From NCBI GenBank assembly GCA_033297075.1, contig MU858046.1, positions 868,001 to 932,000 on the forward strand: a DNA stretch of 64,000 nucleotides, read 5' to 3'. The position numbers and the translations under genes are program-made. How positions within the stretch are numbered: position 1 is the stretch's first letter; the number at the start of each line of letters is the position of its first letter. Below are positions 14,064-40,859 of the stretch, in pieces. The stretch is from Rhypophila decipiens (lineage: Eukaryota > Ascomycota > Sordariomycetes > Sordariales > Naviculisporaceae). The notes under the pieces are model-generated. The model was given only the letters and a program-made list of their open reading frames with translations, searched no databases and was not told the DNA's origin.

Positions 14064-15559
14064 ATGGAGAAAGAATGGAACTTCGATTCTCCCCAGGAAC
14101 TGATGTCGAACTCGGCTTCATCGAGGAACAGCACGACGCCAGCGCCAGATTCAAACCAGCAGGCACCAGATTCACCAGCAACTGGACCTCAGTCAAGTAC
14201 CAGAGTGCGACGCAAGCCCATCCCACGCAAGGGCCATACCAAGTCCCGCCGTGGCTGCTACAACTGCAAAAGCAGAAAAGTCAAATGTCAAGAGAACCTC
14301 CCGACTTGCCTGAACTGTAACAGAATTGGTCTTGTCTGTGAATATCCCGAGCCGACCCAGGTCTTGATCAGGAGACCAGTGCCAGCATCGTTGCCAGCGC
14401 CGGAAAGCTCCCTTCAGCCAGTCCCAGCTCCAAACCTGTTCACAGTGGATGACTTGCGTTTCTTCCACCATTTTGTCGTCACAGCCTATCCTCCTCTGCC
14501 CATAAAACGTGATGACATATGGAGAGAGGTAGCCCAGATATCATATGGTGTTTGTCTCCCCTTCCACCTATTACTTGGACGAGTAGCACCGTAGATGACT
14601 AACCCGCTCTCTCTCTCGCTGTAGTATGACTACCTGGTGCATGCCATGCTCGGATTGGCGGCTTCACATCTCAGTCTATACGGCCAGGACTACACATCAC
14701 AGGCCTTGTCACACCGCGTTCAAGCCATACAGTCTCTCAACAAATCCTTGAACAAGCCATGTTCGTCCCGGGCCGAGGGAGATGCCCGGTTTGGTGCCAT
14801 CATGGCCCTGACCTTCCAAGCGTCGTGTATGCCCGAGGGCATGGTTGAGTTTCTCTCCATGGTCAGAGGCTGCCACATAGTTGCTGCCCACTCCATGCCG
14901 AGCTTCGAGGCATCGGCCTTCGAGTCATTTACTGCCAACGGCTACACCAGCAGTATCAGAAAGCTGATCGCACCAGGGGGCTTTGTCGAGACCTCGGACG
15001 TGGCCTTGTTTGATGGCTTCTCCCTCTCAGTCCGGGCTCTTGGTCCGCTCTGTAAAAGTCCATTAGAGATCAGGTTTCTGGCAAACACAGAACGTATCCT
15101 CAAGTTGACCAAGACGTCGGTTCTAGAATGTAAGTCCAACCTGATTGGTCTCGCATCATTTCTGTCCAAGAACTAGTCTAACAAGCCACAAACAATACAG
15201 CATTTGCCCTGTTCACATCCTTGTACGACATAATAAGCGAATCCAGCAACGACGAATTCGCCTCTTTCACGGAACCAACAAACTACGCTGCACAGCTGCT
15301 CTTGATCCATTTCATCTTGATCGAGTACCTGATCGGCGAAGCTGCCCTGGGAGATGTCGGCGTCCGCTTCGGGTTCCGCAGACGTGTGTGCATCAAGTGG
15401 TTGAACAACCTCGCCGATTCACTCCCCCCCGAGTACCAGCCATATCTGAAATGGCCCAAGAAGTACTGCGAGCTCTTGAGACACCAGAAGAACCCCTTGG
15501 TTCTGAGAGGAACTGCTGCTCTCTCCTCTCCTGCTCCCTCAACCTCGACCATATCTTGA
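14064..15559 (+). CDS. Zn2Cys6 fungal transcription factor
   Basis: Exons 14064-14549, 14625-15129 and 15201-15559 encode 449 aa. The zinc cluster C-x2-C-x6-C-x6-C-x2-C-x6-C uses Cys65, 68, 75, 82, 85 and 92. It is preceded by a basic stretch (R-V-R-R-K-P) and followed by a Pro-rich linker, then by a helical region such as these regulators use for dimerisation and effector control. It should be a nuclear DNA-binding regulator, with target unknown. The first intron's donor is GTTTGT, chosen because the nearer GTGTTT donor would create a stop. Branch site and acceptor (GCTGTAG) are ordinary. The start is the first in-frame ATG. An AG at the end of CTTGGCAG at 14028 leaves open a noncoding or short coding upstream exon. 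A 61-bp repeat begins 34 bp after the stop codon. Confidence 0.85.
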
Positions 15560-15593
15560 CCACAACTCTCCCAAATGCCAAGAGGAGCATCGT

Positions 15594-15654
15594 ACGGCCC
15601 ACAACAGAACGAGGCTCCTCACCTCGTCCTACAAACGAGTCTTGCGATGCCGTC
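15594..15654 (+). repeat. 61-bp direct repeat, left copy
   Basis: It matches 21852-21912 at 59 of 61 positions, and the two differences are adjacent. Read on the minus strand it encodes the last residues R-H-R-K-T-R of the RTA1-like protein, then a changed residue and a stop. No other part of an RTA1 gene continues past 15654. It therefore looks like a severed copy of that gene's 3' end, placed just after the Zn2Cys6 gene. Confidence 0.9.
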
Positions 15655-16187
15655 TTCCCCCTACGGGAGAGGGTTATATGTGTGCTCCGGGTGATCTGAA
15701 TCCAGGCCTGACTGCTCACTCTTTGTGTGTCTCACCCCCAATGATTGCCGGGGACGCAGCAGCGTGGTTGTCGGATGAGCCCTGAGCCCTTGTTTCGCTG
15801 CACAGAGATACGATAGTCGTGCACTTCATCACATGGTGGCTCAGCGTAGATGCCCTCGTGGCTTCGGTCTTTGTAAAACAAGATCTGAACTCGGCTTGGC
15901 GATGCCATAAATGCTTCCACTTCTGGTCAGGATGTGGTACGATGCTGTCACACGCTGACGTACCCTTGTCTTCCAATACAGAGTCTTTCTCGGTCCGATT
16001 GTGTTCGACGCCGCTGCTCATGAGAAAAGAGACCAGCGATGTGTTTTCAGGTGTGAATTCAACCTACACTCTCCCCCCAGATCTAAAAGACTTTTGTTTG
16101 TATGGATTTGATTCTTACTTGTCTTATCTATCATCTAACTCTCTCCCAACTTCATTCACAACCCAGAAGATTTCCTTTCTGCACTGC
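15655..16187. other. Intergenic, left end of the repeat-bounded block
   Basis: It holds the 3' flank of the DUF3176 gene. No gene, transposon end or terminal inverted repeat is visible at the junction with the 61-bp repeat. Confidence 0.45.
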
Positions 16188-18760
16188 TTATAGAGGCTGA
16201 CTCTCTTCCTGTCCCCTTTGACACTTCTTGTTCACCATTGGCATAGTATTCCGACGAGTTTCAATCCCTGGTCGTGCAGGTGGCTCCCCGATGGGCTGGG
16301 ACATCAGCACTATAACTCCACCTTCCATCCTGGCCATCATCTGCTTAGCCTCCTGCTTCATCGCTTTGATACTAGTATCCCGCCGAACTGGGCGCTGCGC
16401 TTCGAGTTGTCGTGCACCGTCGTCAGTGTCACTGGCATCACACGACTGACTCCGTGACTTCGAGTTGCTAGTCGTAGATACGGTTGACTCGTCGGATGAT
16501 CCCGACCCCAGCCCGGGCTTGTCATAACACCCGCACTTGTCATTCATCTGCCGTTTGAAACAATCGTCAAGATTTGTCCTGTCATGAGGAGCAGGACTGC
16601 CAACCTCATCCCCTCGGCGGTGTCTCATGTCTCCAGGCAAAGCAAACAGCGTAGCCAAGGCCGAGCTCTTGACCACTGGAACCCCCGGCATCCGTCTCGT
16701 CGCCAGGACAGTGCAAACGAACAGCACGATCGACGCGACCAGCTGGACGACTAGAAAGGCCAGCCAGCCCCACCGGACGTGGATATACGTCTCAGGGGAG
16801 AGGACAGTGCCGACGACGGGAAACGAGTTGGGTGTGGATCGGTAAGGCGGGATGGAGCGGAATCTGATAATAAATAGATCTGGGTTAGTACTGCAACGGT
16901 TGTACATGCATCCATGCGTGGATGTGGTATTAAGGTGGTCGGTATGAAAACGTACCCATTTGTGATACTCACTGCCACGTTGTTCGCCAAGTTGTGCAGC
17001 CTCTGCGACTGCAGACCAGCGTCACCATTCCCATCACTCAGCAGAGCAGAACCGCTGGAATTTCCAACCCTGTCCGTACCACCTTGGTCGTCCGCTGAGA
17101 CATACCCATAAACCGCATGAGCCAGGGTCGGCAGCCCGCTGTTCCCTGCAAGAACCATGTGATCCATCCCGTCCCAGGCCCAGATCCCCGTCGAGTCTTG
17201 CGTGATGTACTTGGCCAGGAGCGTCAGACTGCGAATATCAGCCGTATAGTTCTTGTGTTCGCCTGTTGAGTTATTAAGGCTACCCCGTAGTGTCAGTAAT
17301 CCAAGGTTGGGATTCCTCCCGTCCTGGACGCAGTCGGTGAACTGCGCGCCTCCGCTCACCACCTTGGGTGCCGTGCAGTTGATTTTTACCCCTGTGCTCT
17401 CGTCGTCGTCATCGTCATGGGCCACAACGTCATATGTCGATGAGAGGAGCTCTGTTTTGGCGGTTCCGTTGTCCACCCTGACAGAATAAGTATTAACGCA
17501 GACGTAATAGATCATCTCAAAGGCCTGCCAGCGCCACGGGTCGCTTCTGGCGGTGTTCCCACTGGTATAGGTGACGTTGCCCGCGTCGGCCCAGATAACT
17601 TTGTAGCCTGCTACTCGGGCCCTTGACAGGGCTGTACCATCAGGAAAGCTCTTGGTAGACGCGGAGGTAGAAGAGCTGTATACAGTGTAGGAAACAGGAG
17701 CGATAAAATACTCGTTTGAATCCGTATTATTATCGAGACCAGAAAAAGAAATATTGTAGGCCAACGTGCCGTTTAATCGTAGGCTATCCTCGTCGATATA
17801 ACTGTCCCACGCGGTCCAGTCGTCGGCTGTAGAAAAGGGGACTTGTTGGATGACGAGGTTATCAGTGATGTTAGTTACTTTGGAGCACAGGGCGAGACTC
17901 TCAATGGGCTCCCAGGTACAAGTACCGCTAGAGCAAGAAGGGCTCAGCTCTGGGATGAGTGAATCGGTAGGGTGGACGAGGCCCGAGGAGACGTAATTCG
18001 ACACGTCGAGCGACCATGACCCGATGAGTCCGACCCGGCTCTGGTAGTGCTCGACGGCTCTTGTCGTGGCACCGGGAAAGTCGGGGCTGCCGGGGGTGAC
18101 TTGGACCAAGCGGGAGGGATACTCAATTAGGAGCTGTGTGATGGGGGTTGTCGCGATGCTAGTCAGCGAGATGATAGCTCCGACGGCGGCAATGTGCCTG
18201 TATTTTAGCAGCCGGAGGAGCCCAATTGATCCGATGATGCCCCGGCTCGCATTGTCGAAAGTGTGAAAATCTGCGAGAGGCCGCTCGTCATTGGTTGCGA
18301 ACCAGTTCCATTTCCATTGAGAGATGCACTGGACGACTGGGTATATAAAAGCCGCTTTTGTGAAGGTGGTGAAGAAGGCGAGGAAAGTGTTGAGAGTCAT
18401 GTGTATGGGCAGTTTGGGGAGGGGCTGGTTGTCAAACGCATTGAGGACCGTGATGATGACGAGGAAGGTGCAGACACTGATCAGAATACAGGCAGTCTCG
18501 AGCATCCACAACTTGAGTAAGTGTTTCTTGCCACTGCCAGGTGTTGTTGGTCGGTCGTTGCCTTGTCTAGCACCTTCCCACTCCGCAGCTTTGCTATCAT
18601 GCTCGCTGGCAGTGGAGCAAGTGCTTGGGGCACGAGGCCAAGGGGTCACTTTAGTCGAAGAAGTGTATTTCTTGGTACGATCCTGGATGGCATGACTTGG
18701 AATAGTTGAAACTGGTGACGCTCGTTGACGATGAGCAGTAACGGGGTCATAGGGGGACAT
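16188..18760 (-). CDS. DUF3176 family membrane protein
   Basis: Two exons, 18760-16956 and 16863-16188 (intron 92 bp, GTACGT..CAG with CTAAC branch), encode 826 aa. A cytosolic Ser/Thr-rich N terminus leads into two membrane segments (about 84-106 and 121-146), then the family hallmark Q-W-K-W (148-151) and a third membrane segment (about 190-211). A large, probably extracytosolic domain with several N-x-S/T sites follows. After E-T-Y-I-H-V-R-W (626-633) comes the fourth membrane segment (about 633-656), then a long charged tail. This layout is diagnostic of DUF3176, a fungus-specific family of unknown function. An in-frame ATG at 18865 would add 35 residues. The ATG at 18760 is preferred because the extra segment is hydrophobic and unlike the family. 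The gene lies inside the block bounded by the 61-bp direct repeats. Confidence 0.88.
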
Positions 18761-19746
18761 GATAGGTAGCTTCGGGCCAATTAGATGTGCCGGTAAATGT
18801 ATGAACGAATAGATTGTTCTGAAGCGTGACAGCATAACAATTGTCGATTCTGGCAAGATCTGCATATCAAGGTCTGCTTCAGATCGACATGAAGTGATGG
18901 ATTTTATATAAAATGCTTCTTCATATGGTCGTTGGCGATATATTATTTAGCCCAAGCTGATACGGCTCATACATGACACCTGCAACTTCCTAGCCCCCAC
19001 AAGGCAAATTGTTATCTTCAAGGGCATTGCTAACTCAGCTATATATGAAAAAGTTGCGCTGCGCTAGATAGCGATAGGTCCTTTGGTCATTCAGTCTTCA
19101 GCGTGAATAACTTCATTGATCTCGCCGCCGGTAAGCATCAGCAGATTCCAGCAGCCTATCCAGTCGCACTCCCATCTTTGTGGTACCTACTATAAAATAT
19201 ATATGATAGAGACAGACTCAATATCACAGCCACGGGGATATGGATACCCGTTGCAGCTTGAACCGGGCCGAAGCTTGTTTGTGAGGCTGAATTTGTTCAT
19301 GGGGTGGTATCCTGTCTTTAACGGTGGAGGGTACCTCCTCAGTGCGTGTGGTCTGTTTATGATACTAATTGGCAAAACCATCCTGCAGGGCTGTCTTGAA
19401 CGGAGCGCTGTACGTACATAAGTACCTTATATTTGATACACAACCAAGACCACTCGGCAGTTCATTGTCCCAATATAATCGGATAATATCCCGAAATAGA
19501 CGATTGTACGTGACGCTGTTATCAATGTTCAAAGATGGGATCAAGTTCCCCGCTTCAAGAACCTGGAGTTGGAGATTCTGTTCTTAAATGTATTTCTAGA
19601 CCACTGGCATGATCTGAAATCATATCCATTCCCCATAGCATTTCAATTACTTTCATTCCTGACAGCCGTATCTGGCCCCAAACAGGAAATATTCACGGCT
19701 GCCCAAGCGAAAAGACAGCCCCCAATTCACCCCCAAGAGCTTAATC
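18761..19746. other. Intergenic, divergent upstream region
   Basis: AT-rich upstream sequence lies between the DUF3176 gene (-) and the secreted-protein gene (+). TATA-like stretches are present near 18900 and 19190, but none can be assigned to a start site. No gene was recognised. Confidence 0.45.
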
Positions 19747-20229
19747 ATGCTCGGTCTGCAACGATTACTTGCCATTCTCCCCCTCGTCAGCCTCACTACC
19801 TCCCTGGCTGTAGGACCCCGGCAGGCCGACGGCTCAGGCTCAGAGATCGGCCCAGTGTCCTTTCCATGCTACTGGCGCGACCACGACCACGCTACTTGCT
19901 ACGCCCGCGCCAGGTTGTTCAACCAGGAATATACCTGGTGGGTCTGCGACGTCCGAGTGGAGGGTGATTACTGGTATTACAGCTGCAGCAGACAGCAGAA
20001 CTGTATCAATGAGCCTGTTCGCGGGACGGTGTGTCATTTCCTCTGCGACAATATCGAGCTCGGAGTTGACCAAGGCTTGGTGGCTCGATCTTCAACACTG
20101 CCAGTGTTGGGTGCTTCGATACAACGCCGCAACGCAACACCGTTCGACAACAATCCTATAAATGTTATAAACGGTGGCAACCCGAATGATGTCTGCCGCT
20201 ACTACATGAACGGCCGTCCGTGTTGCTGA
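19747..20229 (+). CDS. Small secreted cysteine-rich protein (candidate effector)
   Basis: Intronless 160-residue protein. It has a clear N-terminal signal peptide (hydrophobic core L-L-A-I-L-P-L-V, cleavage probably after S-L-A at 21) and no further membrane segment. The mature chain has ten cysteines (41, 51, 67, 80, 86, 96, 100, 150, 159, 160), enough for five disulfides. Two adjacent cysteines end the protein. The middle is Trp/Tyr-rich, and a dibasic R-R at 127-128 is a possible Kex2 site separating a cysteine-poor region from the tail. No named domain was recognised. Secreted, small and cysteine-rich is the usual description of fungal effectors or antimicrobial proteins, but that role is inference. 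It sits inside the block bounded by 61-bp direct repeats. Confidence 0.75.
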   Translation: MLGLQRLLAILPLVSLTTSLAVGPRQADGSGSEIGPVSFPCYWRDHDHATCYARARLFNQEYTWWVCDVRVEGDYWYYSCSRQQNCINEPVRGTVCHFLCDNIELGVDQGLVARSSTLPVLGASIQRRNATPFDNNPINVINGGNPNDVCRYYMNGRPCC

Positions 20230-21851
20230 CTGGAAGTATTGGGTTCTTCGATAGGTATGATCTGGAATGGATAGCAAACACTTGGCAGGATTCTGGTTGA
20301 TACTTCATAATACATGTGAGCTAGGATGGACTGTTTTTATGGATTCTGGCTTTATGGTTGATTGTCAGTTTCCTGCCTGAAGCAACATGTTGTCAAGAAG
20401 GGTGGATGTCACACAGGTTCTGGCGGCAATTAGGCTTGCCTCTATTAGCAGGAAGGCGACAATAAGATACGCATATCCTGTTGAAGATTGCATAGGATCT
20501 CGTCTCCTACTTGCCTCTCTACCTTGACGTCTGATAAGTAATAGTGACTTGACTCTCCTTCAATCGGGTAATACTTATTCGGCAACTGGTGGGTAGGTAT
20601 TGGGAACCATGGCCACCAATACTGCACCAAATGCAAGTGTTGTTGGACTCACTTCCAATTTGTCGCGCTGGCCCATTTCTTCTGAGCGGTAAAGTTCATC
20701 GATTTCATCTGCGTAAACGTCAAAAATATCAACAGCGGGTTAGTTGGCAGGAAGATACCAGACTGTATTTCCAGCTTCTTTAAATCATCGGCATTACCTC
20801 CGAGGAAGGGGTGCGAGTCACGTCAGAATAAAGGGTCCGAGTGCGGAGAGACAAAATGATGTTTGTGTTTGTTGTTTATTGTGTTTTGAAGTGTGAACTC
20901 AACCCGTGGGATCATCAGCAGGATTCTTGGAGAGTAAGAAGATCGCTTTTAAAGTGATGGACTTGTTGGAAACACTAGTAATTACTAGATAAGTACGTGC
21001 ACGTAAAGAAAGGGGTTAGAAAAGGGGTATTTTGACTGTGGTTGCATTGGTTGTTGTGTGTTGTTCAGGGGTTCGAGGAAGCCGTTAGTCAGGGGCTAGA
21101 AGTAAGGGGGGAGAGCCCCACTTATTCAGCGTGGCTGACTAAGCTGCAACGTGACCACATTGTTAAAAATTCAGCCTGATATACCAGGTTATTAAATTTC
21201 ATTTCCCGTATTGAATAACGTTAAGAAAAAAGACGAAAAGATCGTTCCGTCCAAGACACAGAATTGTCGAATCGGTCCATCGACATAACCATTCTCGCAT
21301 CGACTTCGGGACCGCACGCAACGTCACGGCATGGCAGCCTGAGCCCAATGGCCGAGGCACCCACGGCCTTTTGTCATCCTACATCCTACATCACCACCAT
21401 GATCTTGTGCGTCTGGACGGCGGTCCATCTCAACGTCCCGGAGCATGAGAGCTTTACAAAGGGGCCCGCCGGCCGGCATGTCCCGTGGTACAAAGGCCCG
21501 ACACAGATGCACAGAAAGCTGGGATAGGTCCTGATAGGTATTTTTGTACCCGAGCTGGTCGCATGGACTGCGTTCGAACAGTGCAGCGATGCCAGGATGC
21601 TGTCTAGAAGGATGAGAGCTTTTTTATCTGAGCCTTCCTACCCGAGGTTGGGAGGAGCCGCAACATCACTCTTCCGGCGAGAACGGAGAAGCGCCAGGGA
21701 ACCTAGAGTCTGGGGTTGACGAGATGATCCATACAGCTTCCCCCATAACAAGCTAAAGCGCCGGCAGACTCAAGAGGGGTCTCATCGACGCGGGCCGGGC
21801 GGCGGGCAATATATTACCTGTTTCTGTGCTCATTTTGGGCTCTCCACTGCA
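20230..21851. other. Gene-poor right part of the repeat-bounded block
   Basis: No supported gene. Open frames (for example 21264-21527) lack any recognisable content. The stretch 20.8-21.25 kb has an irregular composition with G-runs and AT-rich pieces, which could be an old transposon remnant, but no terminal repeats or coding relics could be established. Confidence 0.4.
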
Positions 21852-21912
21852 ACGGCCCACAACAGAACGAGGCTCCTCACCTCGTCCTATGAACGAGTCT
21901 TGCGATGCCGTC
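21852..21912 (+). repeat. 61-bp direct repeat, right copy
   Basis: It is the partner of 15594-15654, in the same orientation. Here the repeat covers the true 3' end of the RTA1-like gene on the minus strand (stop codon at 21889-21887) and about 35 bp beyond it. It includes a short inverted repeat ACGAGG...CCTCGT that could form a small hairpin just downstream of the stop. Confidence 0.9.
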
Positions 21913-22938
21913 GTCGGCGAGCTTCGAGTTCCTCGCCCTCCTCCTCGTCACTCGAAGTGCGCTTCCCGCCTCCATCACGACCGAGAACTGCGCTTGGGTG
22001 ATGGACACAGAATACCGAGATGGCCACCAACATGGGCACGGCTTCGAAGACCCAAAAGAGCCACTCATGCCTGAACGAGTACCCGTCGACGCCTTCGCCA
22101 AACTCGGCCGCCCTGAATATGCAGCGGATCTATTTCCCTCCCATATCAGTCAGTATCTTGGCCAAACCAGCACTTTTGCAAGGAATAACCCACCAAGATC
22201 ATCGCAGAAGAGATATAAACCGCCCTCAGCAGTTTTCGCCAATCCCGCGGAGCATCCGCCATAGCTTCCCTCCTCGCCAGGTAATGAAACCGTCCCAAAA
22301 GACTCATAAACAAGACGAAACTGACAGCCTGGAGCCCAAGCCCGCCAATGAGGATATTAATCCCCACCTTGAGGTTCGGACCAGTCCAGTTGTCCGAGCT
22401 GGCGACGCCCGACCCGCTAGATTGGACCATACCACTGAGGATATCTGAGATGACAAAGATTCGGGTGATCCGGTGGGCTGGGAGTCCCGGGGCTATCTTG
22501 TAGTGCTCTCGGAGCAGGATTGACCTGATCATGCGGCCTAGCAGGAGGTAATTGCCCGCTGAGATCAAGATTGGGGCGAGGACTATCAGGGAGAGGGTCG
22601 TTGCGAATGGGGCCTAATAAATAAGCATTGGTACATGTTATTAGAGCTTTCGGTTTGGGAGGAACATGTGGGATATGAAAGATGATGCAAGTCAGTGTAC
22701 ATACAACTTGGCTCGGGTTCCTGATGGAATGACAACGCAAAGCGTATCCGGCCACTTCAACGCCTGCACCCACCACCACGCAGGTGAAGTACCAGGATCG
22801 GTACTTGATAAATGTCTGGTAGAAGATGACGAGGAATATGATGCCGTAGAGGATGCTGGCGAGGATGGCGAGGGCTAGAGAGGGGTTGTACTGCCATACT
22901 GACTGGTCCTCGGGCGGTGGAGTAGTTGGGCCTGCCAT
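21887..22938 (-). CDS. RTA1-like seven-helix membrane protein (lipid-translocating exporter family)
   Basis: Three exons: 22938-22705, 22613-22194 and 22129-21887. Introns are 91 and 64 bp and all junctions are phase 0, giving 298 aa, the normal family length. The N terminus W-Q-Y-N-P-S-L opens the first helix, as in other RTA1 proteins. About seven hydrophobic segments follow. Exon 3 begins with I-R-C-I-F-R and A-E-F, then H-E-W, which matches the conserved last loop and helix. Yeast relatives (Rta1, Rsb1, Pug1) are plasma-membrane or vacuolar proteins linked to sterol-toxin resistance and lipid or porphyrin movement. The substrate here is unknown. A basic, acidic-flanked tail (R-R-R-R-H-R-K-T-R-S) ends the protein. 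An in-frame ATG at 23031 is possible but would add a charged, unconserved segment. The last codons lie in the 61-bp repeat. Confidence 0.88.
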
Positions 22939-23759
22939 TGTTGCTGTTTCTCTTTCTTTTGTTTTTCTCTTGTCAAGGAGGAGACGGCGGCTGTTCGGGA
23001 ATTTCTGATGCTTTTCTGTCGAGGCAGACATTGGGATCGTTTGTCGACGGCATGATGTTCGTGCTTGATATATATGTTCTTCTTTTCACGGTAGAATTCT
23101 TCTTCAGACAGGCAATGGCCGGAGTAAGACGACGTGGGTATTCGCACGACCTTCTGGGAAAGAAAACATCATCAGTCGGATTCCTCTCGAGAGCTGGCGC
23201 GTCCCCGGAGTAAATGTTTCTTAGCCTATGCCTCAAAGGAAAGACAAAGTCAAAGACTAATATCATTAAAAAGTAATCAACCCAAATCTCGCCCTGCCCT
23301 GGTTTTACGCTGTAATTCGTCGTATATTTCATGGTGTAATGTGATTGGTTCGACTGGCTCTTGTTTGGTTGTGGAAAGGGGCATTGTGGCTGTGAATCCG
23401 AGCAATCCGACCATGACGACGTGTCAGCCCGGGATGCTTCTCGGATTGGGTGTTTACTGACGACGACAACAATAATTCTTTGAATCGCAATCAAAGTATA
23501 AAATAGAATTTTAAAGAGATCTCATTTCTTTTTTCTCGAGAGAGAAAAAGCATTTGGCGGGGACCCGTGTGACTATGTCCGGTAACTTTCACGCATCGCG
23601 GGTCACGTCATGATGTCTCTTCGATACGTCTTGGTAGTTTTGAAGCAACTCGGAAACGAAAATAAGATCCTTGCTTCTCAGTCAGTTGTTGTAGTCATCA
23701 GCCCTCTGAAATCTCTATAAGCTGTTGCCGAACATATCCAAAGGATTGTTGACGATTTG
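22939..23759. other. Intergenic between RTA1-like gene and 5S rRNA gene
   Basis: It holds the upstream region of the RTA1-like gene on the minus strand, with a pyrimidine-rich leader near 22940-22980. Short frames on both strands are not supported as genes. Confidence 0.45.
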
Positions 23760-23770: not shown

Positions 23771-23776
23771 GACAAA

Positions 23777-23895
23777 ACATACAGCACCAGGGATTCCCCA
23801 GTGGTCACCCACCTGAGTACTAGTCTGGCGATTAGTGGCTTATCTATGGGGGAGCGGACGGGACCCCGAGTTTTCCACTATCTATGGCCGTATGT
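23777..23895 (-). rRNA. 5S ribosomal RNA gene (dispersed copy)
   Basis: 119 nt, the standard size. The 5' end ACATACGGC pairs with the 3' end GCTGTATGT to close helix I. The internal control region is intact in form, with AAGCCACTAATCG as the A-box region and GGTGGGTGACCAC as the C-box. The invariant GGAAAAC and GTCCGCTC segments, which follow the fungal 5S consensus, are also present. A TATA-like element lies about 25-31 bp upstream (GATAAT on the minus strand, 23920-23926). Such an element is needed by dispersed 5S genes in Neurospora. A T-run terminator follows. A single gene amid unrelated sequence fits the scattered 5S organisation of many Pezizomycotina. Loss of function cannot be excluded, because the central loop sequence departs somewhat from the Neurospora form. 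Confidence 0.9.
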
Positions 23896-40611: not shown

Positions 40612-40613
40612 TA

Positions 40614-40857
40614 CAGTCAACCCCCTGTTTGATTGTTAGCGCAGTTCTCCGGGCTAGGCCCACATCCAAATATCAAACTTCAACAGAAAAACAAGAAGAA
40701 AAGGTCTTTTAAACGGAAAAATAGGGTATTAAGATAGAAAGAGCAAAAGGAACTCTATAAGACTGTCTTTTTTCTATAAAAATTGGCTATTTGGCCGAAA
40801 AGTTGTGATCTAAACTGGGTAGAGTACCACGCTAACAATCAAACAGGAGGTTGACTG
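40614..40857. mobile_element. 244-bp MITE with 28-bp terminal inverted repeats
   Basis: The two ends are inverted repeats of 28 bp that match at 27 positions. They start CAGTCAACC on the left (40614-40641), with the reverse complement at 40830-40857. Both ends are flanked by TA (40612-40613 and 40858-40859), the target duplication made by Tc1/mariner-pogo (Fot1-like) transposases. The interior is AT-rich, has no coding capacity and is too short for a transposase, so this is a nonautonomous element moved by a related enzyme elsewhere. The near-perfect ends suggest it is not very old. Confidence 0.9.
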
Positions 40858-40859
40858 TA

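What the first reader, a model, noticed from the sequence alone, without database searches (positions are those of the whole stretch)
15594..21912. 61-bp direct repeats bound a 6.2-kb block that looks inserted between two convergent genes
Copies at 15594-15654 and 21852-21912 are 59/61 identical and in the same orientation. The right copy is the genuine 3' end of the RTA1-like gene. The left copy holds that gene's last few codons and downstream DNA but nothing further, directly after the Zn2Cys6 gene. The simplest reading is that the Zn2Cys6 and RTA1-like genes were once convergent neighbours. A block carrying a DUF3176 membrane protein and a cysteine-rich secreted protein then entered with duplication of about 61 bp of target. 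A target duplication this long is not typical of known fungal transposons and suggests staggered-break repair or an undescribed mobile cassette. No terminal inverted repeats were seen.
Basis: partly seen in the sequence, partly recalled or inferred. Interest (0 to 1): 0.78.

Follow-up and report, generated by a model that had tools for sequence, protein, structure and literature searches.

The report
Captured gene block with repair scar
In a dung fungus, a 6.2-kb stretch carrying two genes sits between two genes that are often neighbours in related fungi, and the short copied pieces at its edges look like scars of a broken chromosome mended with extra DNA rather than of a new jumping element.

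Summary
The two 61-mers (15594-15654, 21852-21912) are 59/61 identical, direct, and the only two places found in the 45.7-Mb genome. The fungus is Rhypophila decipiens (Sordariales). The right copy is the original: the RTA1-like C-terminal tail is partly shared with the closest relative. DUF3176 homologues share that contig in 0 of 11 (3 of them close). A second scar was missed: 21729-21778, 73 bp left of the right 61-mer, is an inverted copy (48/50) of exon 1 of an NMNAT gene 30.6 kb away. In 219 kb of contig these are the only two isolated short pairs of this kind. The block shows no element gene, terminal inverted repeats or second copy. Best reading: staggered-break repair that duplicated 61 bp, copied an NMNAT filler and captured the block. 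A new mobile cassette is not supported. No relative's DNA could be read; the empty site is predicted, not seen.

The parts
14064..15559 (+). Zn2Cys6 transcription-factor gene (PF00172 + PF11951), left flank of the insertion
   Evidence: sequence; splice sites by eye; P0093, 100% over 97%; Pfam
15594..15654 (+). left 61-bp copy: duplicate of the 3' end of the RTA1-like gene, starting 34 nt after the Zn2Cys6 stop
15655..21851 (.). 6197-bp intervening block, one full copy found in the genome
16188..18760 (-). DUF3176 membrane-protein gene with one intron (start codon chosen by eye); closest paralogue C232:48472-49866 (67%)
19747..20229 (+). 160-aa cysteine-rich protein (10 Cys), judged secreted by eye from its hydrophobic N-terminus; no Pfam or PDB match; next best match in the genome E 0.05
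20964..21162 (.). noncoding stretch 78% identical to C3:447158-447349, which lies beside a reverse-transcriptase ORF; perhaps an old repeat relic
21729..21778 (+). 50-bp patch (48/50) of NMNAT exon 1, inverted relative to its source at C2:859032-859081
21852..21912 (+). right 61-bp copy: native 3' end of the RTA1-like gene (stop codon 21887-21889)
21887..22938 (-). RTA1-like gene (PF04479), right flank of the insertion

Best explanation
Zn2Cys6 and the RTA1-like gene were neighbours, with about 69 bp between their stops in the predicted ancestor. A break with about 61-nt staggered ends formed at the RTA1-like 3' end. Both overhangs were filled in, leaving one 61-bp copy on each side. Instead of being simply rejoined, the ends took up a 6.2-kb genomic piece carrying the DUF3176 gene and a cysteine-rich protein gene, plus a 50-bp filler copied from the NMNAT gene on the same contig. 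Shown here: the two copies, which copy is original, the NMNAT origin of the patch, one full copy of the block in this genome and, from contig lengths and locus tags only, linkage of the flanking genes in relatives. Inferred: that it was one event, the staggered break, the fill-in, and the source of the block.
For: Only two places for the 61-mer in 45.7 Mb. The copies sit where a target duplication between the two facing genes would lie, in direct orientation. Linkage of the flanking genes: 16 of 21 species, three of them with consecutive locus tags; DUF3176 on that contig in 0 of 11. Second patch from intact NMNAT exon 1, 73 bp inside the right end, with similar divergence (2/50 against 2/61). 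These are the only two isolated pairs of this type in 219 kb; two randomly placed pairs come this close with p about 0.004, a figure worked out after the fact. The DUF3176 gene keeps its intron, so capture was of DNA, not of a spliced message. In print, staggered breaks with 46-nt and 49-nt overhangs yield direct duplications (PMC5730883 and PMC8355091, passages), and induced breaks in the Sordariomycete Magnaporthe yield duplications of neighbouring sequence and insertion of genes from another locus (PMC9684475, passages).
Against: No empty allele was seen; no relative's genome is held. Linkage rests on equal contig lengths and locus tags, not on DNA. 5 of 21 species do not show it; in two Dactylonectria species the linked Zn2Cys6 protein (39%) is not the best hit (50-51%, on other contigs), and several linked hits are only 37-41% identical. 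The closest relative (PSN 640) has no DUF3176 hit and no Zn2Cys6 hit among the 120 of 208 listed. No intact donor copy of the block was found in the genome, so it must have moved, been lost at the source, or come from outside. The DUF3176 gene is old. The 73 bp between the patch and the right 61-mer has no traced source.
Confidence: 0.58

Rival explanations
1. Two small repair-mediated duplications only. The block was already between the two genes. Breaks at two gene ends were later patched with short copies from nearby genes: 61 bp of the RTA1-like 3' end beside Zn2Cys6, and 50 bp of NMNAT beside RTA1. The repeats then say nothing about how the block arrived.
For: The NMNAT patch is such a copy and needs no block insertion. 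Human repair-mediated duplications of at least 50 bp come more often from close donors, and those within 5 kb average 162 bp (PMC2671141, abstract and passages). The DUF3176 gene is old (68% to its paralogue, unresolved among Sordariales homologues), so the block itself need not be young.
Against: A patch of random origin would have to pick exactly the facing 3' end of the linked neighbour gene, in the one orientation a target duplication predicts. Both patches have nearly the same divergence and lie at the ends of the same block.
Confidence: 0.25
2. A mobile cassette or transposon with an unusually long (about 61-bp) target duplication carried the two genes in.
For: Direct repeats flank a discrete block that interrupts a gene pair linked in other species.
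Against: No element domain in Pfam in 20 of the 22 ORFs of 80 aa or more that overlap the block (the other two only touch its left edge); no terminal inverted repeats above shuffles (180 of 200 shuffles reach the score); no second copy of the block; no paralogue of the cysteine-rich protein better than E 0.05; composition ordinary (49th percentile of 201 windows). The retained intron argues against mRNA retroposition.
Confidence: 0.07
3. Other rearrangement: remnant of a tandem duplication or inversion, or an assembly error.
For: The NMNAT pair is inverted and 30.6 kb apart, as at staggered inversion ends.
Against: The NMNAT reading frame is whole across the 50 bp, so no inversion boundary passes through it. 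The left 61-mer has no further RTA1 sequence on either side. The two copies differ by two bases and lie inside a 987-kb contig, which argues against misassembly; reads were not available.
Confidence: 0.1

Closest known systems
Direct duplications at staggered breaks by fill-in and end-joining (PMC5730883, PMC8355091, passages seen; Vaughn and Bennetzen 2014 seen only as a reference title, content recalled)
   Same: Direct repeat of tens of bp, about the size of an overhang, at a break; no element needed
   Different: Those are tandem in the passages seen; here 6.2 kb of gene-bearing DNA lies between the copies
[quoted passage not shown]
   Same: Short single patches copied from nearby loci into a break, including exons; the NMNAT patch fits
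   Different: Described in vertebrates; the authors' set was limited to donors within 5 kb (up to 619 bp long), here 6.2 and 30.6 kb away
Large insertions after induced breaks in Magnaporthe oryzae (PMC9684475, passages)
   Same: Same class of fungi; duplications of neighbouring sequence and, in one strain, three genes from another locus
   Different: Induced and selected in the laboratory; the gene insertion was read from two joined contigs; junctions show 2-3 bp microhomology, not a 61-bp duplication
Starship and other fungal transposons (recalled; only a paper listing seen)
   Same: Carry host genes into new sites
   Different: Have a recombinase or transposase and short target duplications (recalled); no such domain found here

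Membership tests
Insertion with staggered-break duplication | Direct repeat of the original site flanking the insert, unique in the genome | tested here: met
   right copy original
Insertion with staggered-break duplication | Empty allele with one repeat copy in relatives | not testable with these tools
   no relative's DNA held (message); protein-level linkage only
Repair-mediated duplication (templated patch) | Short copy of an identifiable intact donor nearby, at a junction | tested here: met
   NMNAT patch, 73 bp from the right junction:
Repair-mediated duplication (templated patch) | Microhomology or small deletion at the patch junctions | not testable with these tools
   needs the pre-insertion sequence
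DNA transposon or mobile cassette | Transposase or recombinase gene in the element | tested here: not met
   DUF3176 is the only Pfam match (E up to 0.01) in 20 of the 22 ORFs of 80 aa or more that overlap the block
DNA transposon or mobile cassette | Terminal inverted repeats | tested here: not met
   first against last 150 bp, score 6.5, reached by 180 of 200 shuffles
DNA transposon or mobile cassette | More than one copy or site | tested here: not met
   one full copy in this genome; other strains not tested
LINE-type retroposition | Poly(A) tail and loss of introns | tested here: not met
   intron kept; no poly(A/T) run at either block end

The most novel reading that the evidence does not exclude
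The block is a non-autonomous gene cassette that enters the short spacer between facing genes with target duplications of about 60 bp by an undescribed enzyme, or was brought in from another species through the same break, so that accessory secreted-protein genes are repeatedly added at gene ends in these fungi.
Probability: 0.07. Interest if true: 0.8.

Novelty: new member of a known kind. Interest (0 to 1): 0.42.

Why it matters
If the empty allele is found, this would be a well-marked natural case in a filamentous fungus of two genes added between linked neighbours by break repair, with both the duplicated break ends and a traceable filler still readable. It offers a signature (paired short patches from nearby genes at the ends of accessory blocks) that can be scanned for in the genomes of the 20 new Naviculisporaceae strains reported in PMC12734299, to ask how often accessory genes arrive without a transposon.

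Tried and rejected
Transposon or cassette: no element domain in 20 of 22 ORFs, no terminal inverted repeats, no second copy. LINE-type origin: intron kept, no poly(A). Recent copy from the C232 paralogue: rejected, 67-68% identity and an unresolved place in the tree. Inversion at the NMNAT pair: rejected, the NMNAT frame is whole there. Foreign composition: not seen. RNA family in the 1.6-kb right spacer: none up to E 5. tRNA genes in the window: none; tandem repeats in 15000-23000: none. Further short patches at the block ends within the 219 kb: none better than E 0.1 (nine control stretches gave 0-3 chance hits each, besides the 5S pair, one 23-bp hit at E 0.001 and one 18-bp hit at E 0.005). 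Control DNA against the whole genome at E up to 1e-6: four queries were scored, 55.5 kb in all. Apart from the NMNAT donor itself they gave one repeat family and a 119-bp 78% match, a 273-bp 71% match and two tRNA genes. Two further control queries came back unscored, so the control is partial.
Full report
What was checked. The 61-bp direct repeat is real: 15594-15654 and 21852-21912, 59/61 identical, 6258 bp apart start to start. A search of the whole genome (45,738,638 bases, 408 contigs; the window is C2:868001-932000) with the left copy finds these two places and no other. The two mismatches are adjacent, CA on the left and TG on the right; both would arise from one CG by a single transition in each copy. 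That is an inference.

Organism. The RTA1-like protein is identical over 298 aa to an NCBI protein of Rhypophila decipiens on a contig of 987139 bases, which is the length of C2. R. decipiens belongs to the Sordariales family Naviculisporaceae. The sequenced strain named in PMC12734299 is PSN293, from donkey dung (passages); that the genome held is this strain is presumed. The closest other protein, 80% identical, is from Naviculisporaceae sp. PSN 640; that paper calls PSN640 Pseudorhypophila sp.

Which copy is original. The RTA1-like protein ends ...SSDEEEGEELEARRRRHRKTRS; the PSN 640 protein has ...SSDEEGEELGSRRRHRRGKGHGTR. The acidic and arginine-rich tail is therefore older than the split of the two, and the right 61-mer, which holds the last seven codons and the stop, is the native one. 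The left copy begins 34 nt after the Zn2Cys6 stop and keeps a stop in the same place; if the block is taken out in thought, 69 bp would separate the two stops.

Were the flanking genes neighbours? DNA of relatives is not held. I compared by eye the contig lengths and locus tags that the protein search prints: all 64 RTA1-like hits against the 120 listed of 208 Zn2Cys6 hits. Apart from R. decipiens, 21 named species occur in both. In 15 the two proteins lie on contigs of equal length: Apodospora peruviana, Lasiosphaeria hispida, Podospora australis, Podospora conica, Apiosordaria backusii, Cercophora sp. LCS_1, Cercophora newfieldiana, Dactylonectria macrodidyma, Dactylonectria estremocensis, Eremomyces bilateralis, Pleurostoma richardsiae, Cladobotryum mycophilum, Ilyonectria destructans, Conoideocrella luteorostrata and Lentithecium fluviatile. 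A sixteenth, Akanthomyces muscarius, has consecutive locus tags (LMH87_010963 and 010964) though the longest contigs listed differ. Two of the fifteen also have consecutive tags: LCS_1 (OQA88_9598 and 9599) and Conoideocrella (QQS21_008235 and 008236). Five species do not share a contig: Chaetomium olivicolor, Parathielavia appendiculata, Parathielavia hyrcaniae, Thelonectria olida and Clonostachys rosea. The linked Zn2Cys6 hits are 54-67% identical to ours in the seven species of Apodospora, Lasiosphaeria, Podospora, Apiosordaria and Cercophora, 46-49% in Eremomyces and Pleurostoma, but only 37-41% in the other seven; in the two Dactylonectria species better hits (50-51%) lie elsewhere. The linked RTA1-like hit of Apiosordaria is 44%. 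Gene orientation in relatives was not seen.

Is DUF3176 foreign to this place? Its 28 hits (only the 7994 candidates sharing most words were scored) include 11 species that also have a Zn2Cys6 or RTA1-like hit: L. hispida, P. fimiseda, Cladorrhinum sp. PSN259, Madurella fahalii, Echria macrotheca, Thozetella sp., P. appendiculata, A. peruviana, Colletotrichum truncatum, C. chlorophyti and C. siamense. In none is a DUF3176 hit on the same contig. Only the first three are close homologues (55-58%), and only L. hispida of these also shows the Zn2Cys6-RTA1 linkage. PSN 640 has no DUF3176 hit and no Zn2Cys6 hit among those listed; I cannot say whether the genes are missing or unannotated.

The second scar. 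The block searched against the genome gives, besides itself, a 70% match to the C232 paralogue, a 78% match on C3, and a 50-bp match at 96% to C2:859032-859081 in inverted orientation, at 21729-21778, 73 bp left of the right 61-mer. The other copy lies in the first exon of a gene on the minus strand whose product matches nicotinamide-nucleotide adenylyltransferase (NMNAT) of known structure across that stretch (9iw1, E 2.4e-133). The conserved coding copy is taken as the source; the block holds the patch (48/50). A self-BLAST of C2:768001-987139 gives 21 rows. I left out the tandem and near-tandem rows (copies within 0.3 kb of each other, among them two tRNA-Gln genes, and a 30-bp inverted pair that forms the ends of one element), the two 5S rRNA genes, and a 79% pair 1.5 kb apart; only the 61-bp and the 50-bp pairs remain. 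Two randomly placed pairs have members within 123 bp in 0.4% of draws, a test chosen after seeing the data.

The block itself. Of the 22 ORFs of 80 aa or more that overlap it, 20 were run against Pfam; DUF3176 is the only match. The other gene recognised is a 160-aa protein with a hydrophobic N-terminus and ten cysteines; secretion is judged by eye. It has no Pfam or PDB match and no match in the genome better than E 0.05. I did not search it against the large protein database, so its spread is unknown. DUF3176 has a 67% paralogue on C232 and 15 weaker matches. In a 13-protein tree the block copy, the C232 copy, two metagenome proteins and the Lasiosphaeria-Podospora group form an unresolved fork, so the gene is old and not a recent copy of C232. 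A 199-bp noncoding stretch matches C3 at 78% beside a reverse-transcriptase ORF. Tetranucleotide composition is at the 49th percentile of 201 windows and GC at the 35th.

Mechanism. Fill-in at staggered breaks followed by end-joining gives direct duplications about the size of the overhang: 46-nt overhangs in PMC5730883 and 49-nt in PMC8355091, both in mammalian cells (passages only). Captured nearby DNA as filler is documented in vertebrates (PMC2671141, abstract and passages). In Magnaporthe oryzae, induced breaks gave duplications of neighbouring sequence, DNA from other chromosomes and, in one strain, three genes from another locus (PMC9684475, passages). Put together these explain the anatomy without a new enzyme; that they acted together here is inference. 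The chief rival is that only the small patches are repair products and the block is older; an empty allele would settle it. If the divergence of the patches dates the event, it is young compared with the split from PSN 640, and the prediction is an empty site in other Rhypophila species.

Limits. No empty allele was seen. The source of the block is unknown. Control searches against the whole genome were scored for four of six stretches (scored; not scored). Nine paper searches listed no paper that I recognised as describing this locus; only the listings and the passages named above were read, and most subscription papers are not held.

Noticed in passing
window 23776-23895 (-): A 5S rRNA gene stands upstream of the RTA1-like gene, the only Rfam match in the window; an 87.5% relative lies at C2:793075-793194, so 5S genes look dispersed.
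   Followed up: partly
window 40612-40859: A 248-bp repeat with about 30-bp terminal inverted repeats, matched at 67-92% at 11 other places; looks like a miniature transposon.
   Followed up: partly
window 20964-21162: Noncoding stretch 78% identical to C3:447158-447349 with long exact runs (one of 37 bp) beside a reverse-transcriptase ORF; the pattern of exact runs and gaps is unexplained.
   Followed up: partly
Zn2Cys6 14064-15559 and RTA1-like 21887-22938: Some homologues of the first are named sterol uptake control protein 2 and some of the second 7-aminocholesterol resistance protein; their frequent linkage suggests a regulator-target pair.
   Followed up: partly
Naviculisporaceae sp. PSN 640, P0002: The closest relative has the RTA1-like protein (80%) but no DUF3176 hit and no Zn2Cys6 hit among those listed.
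   Followed up: no
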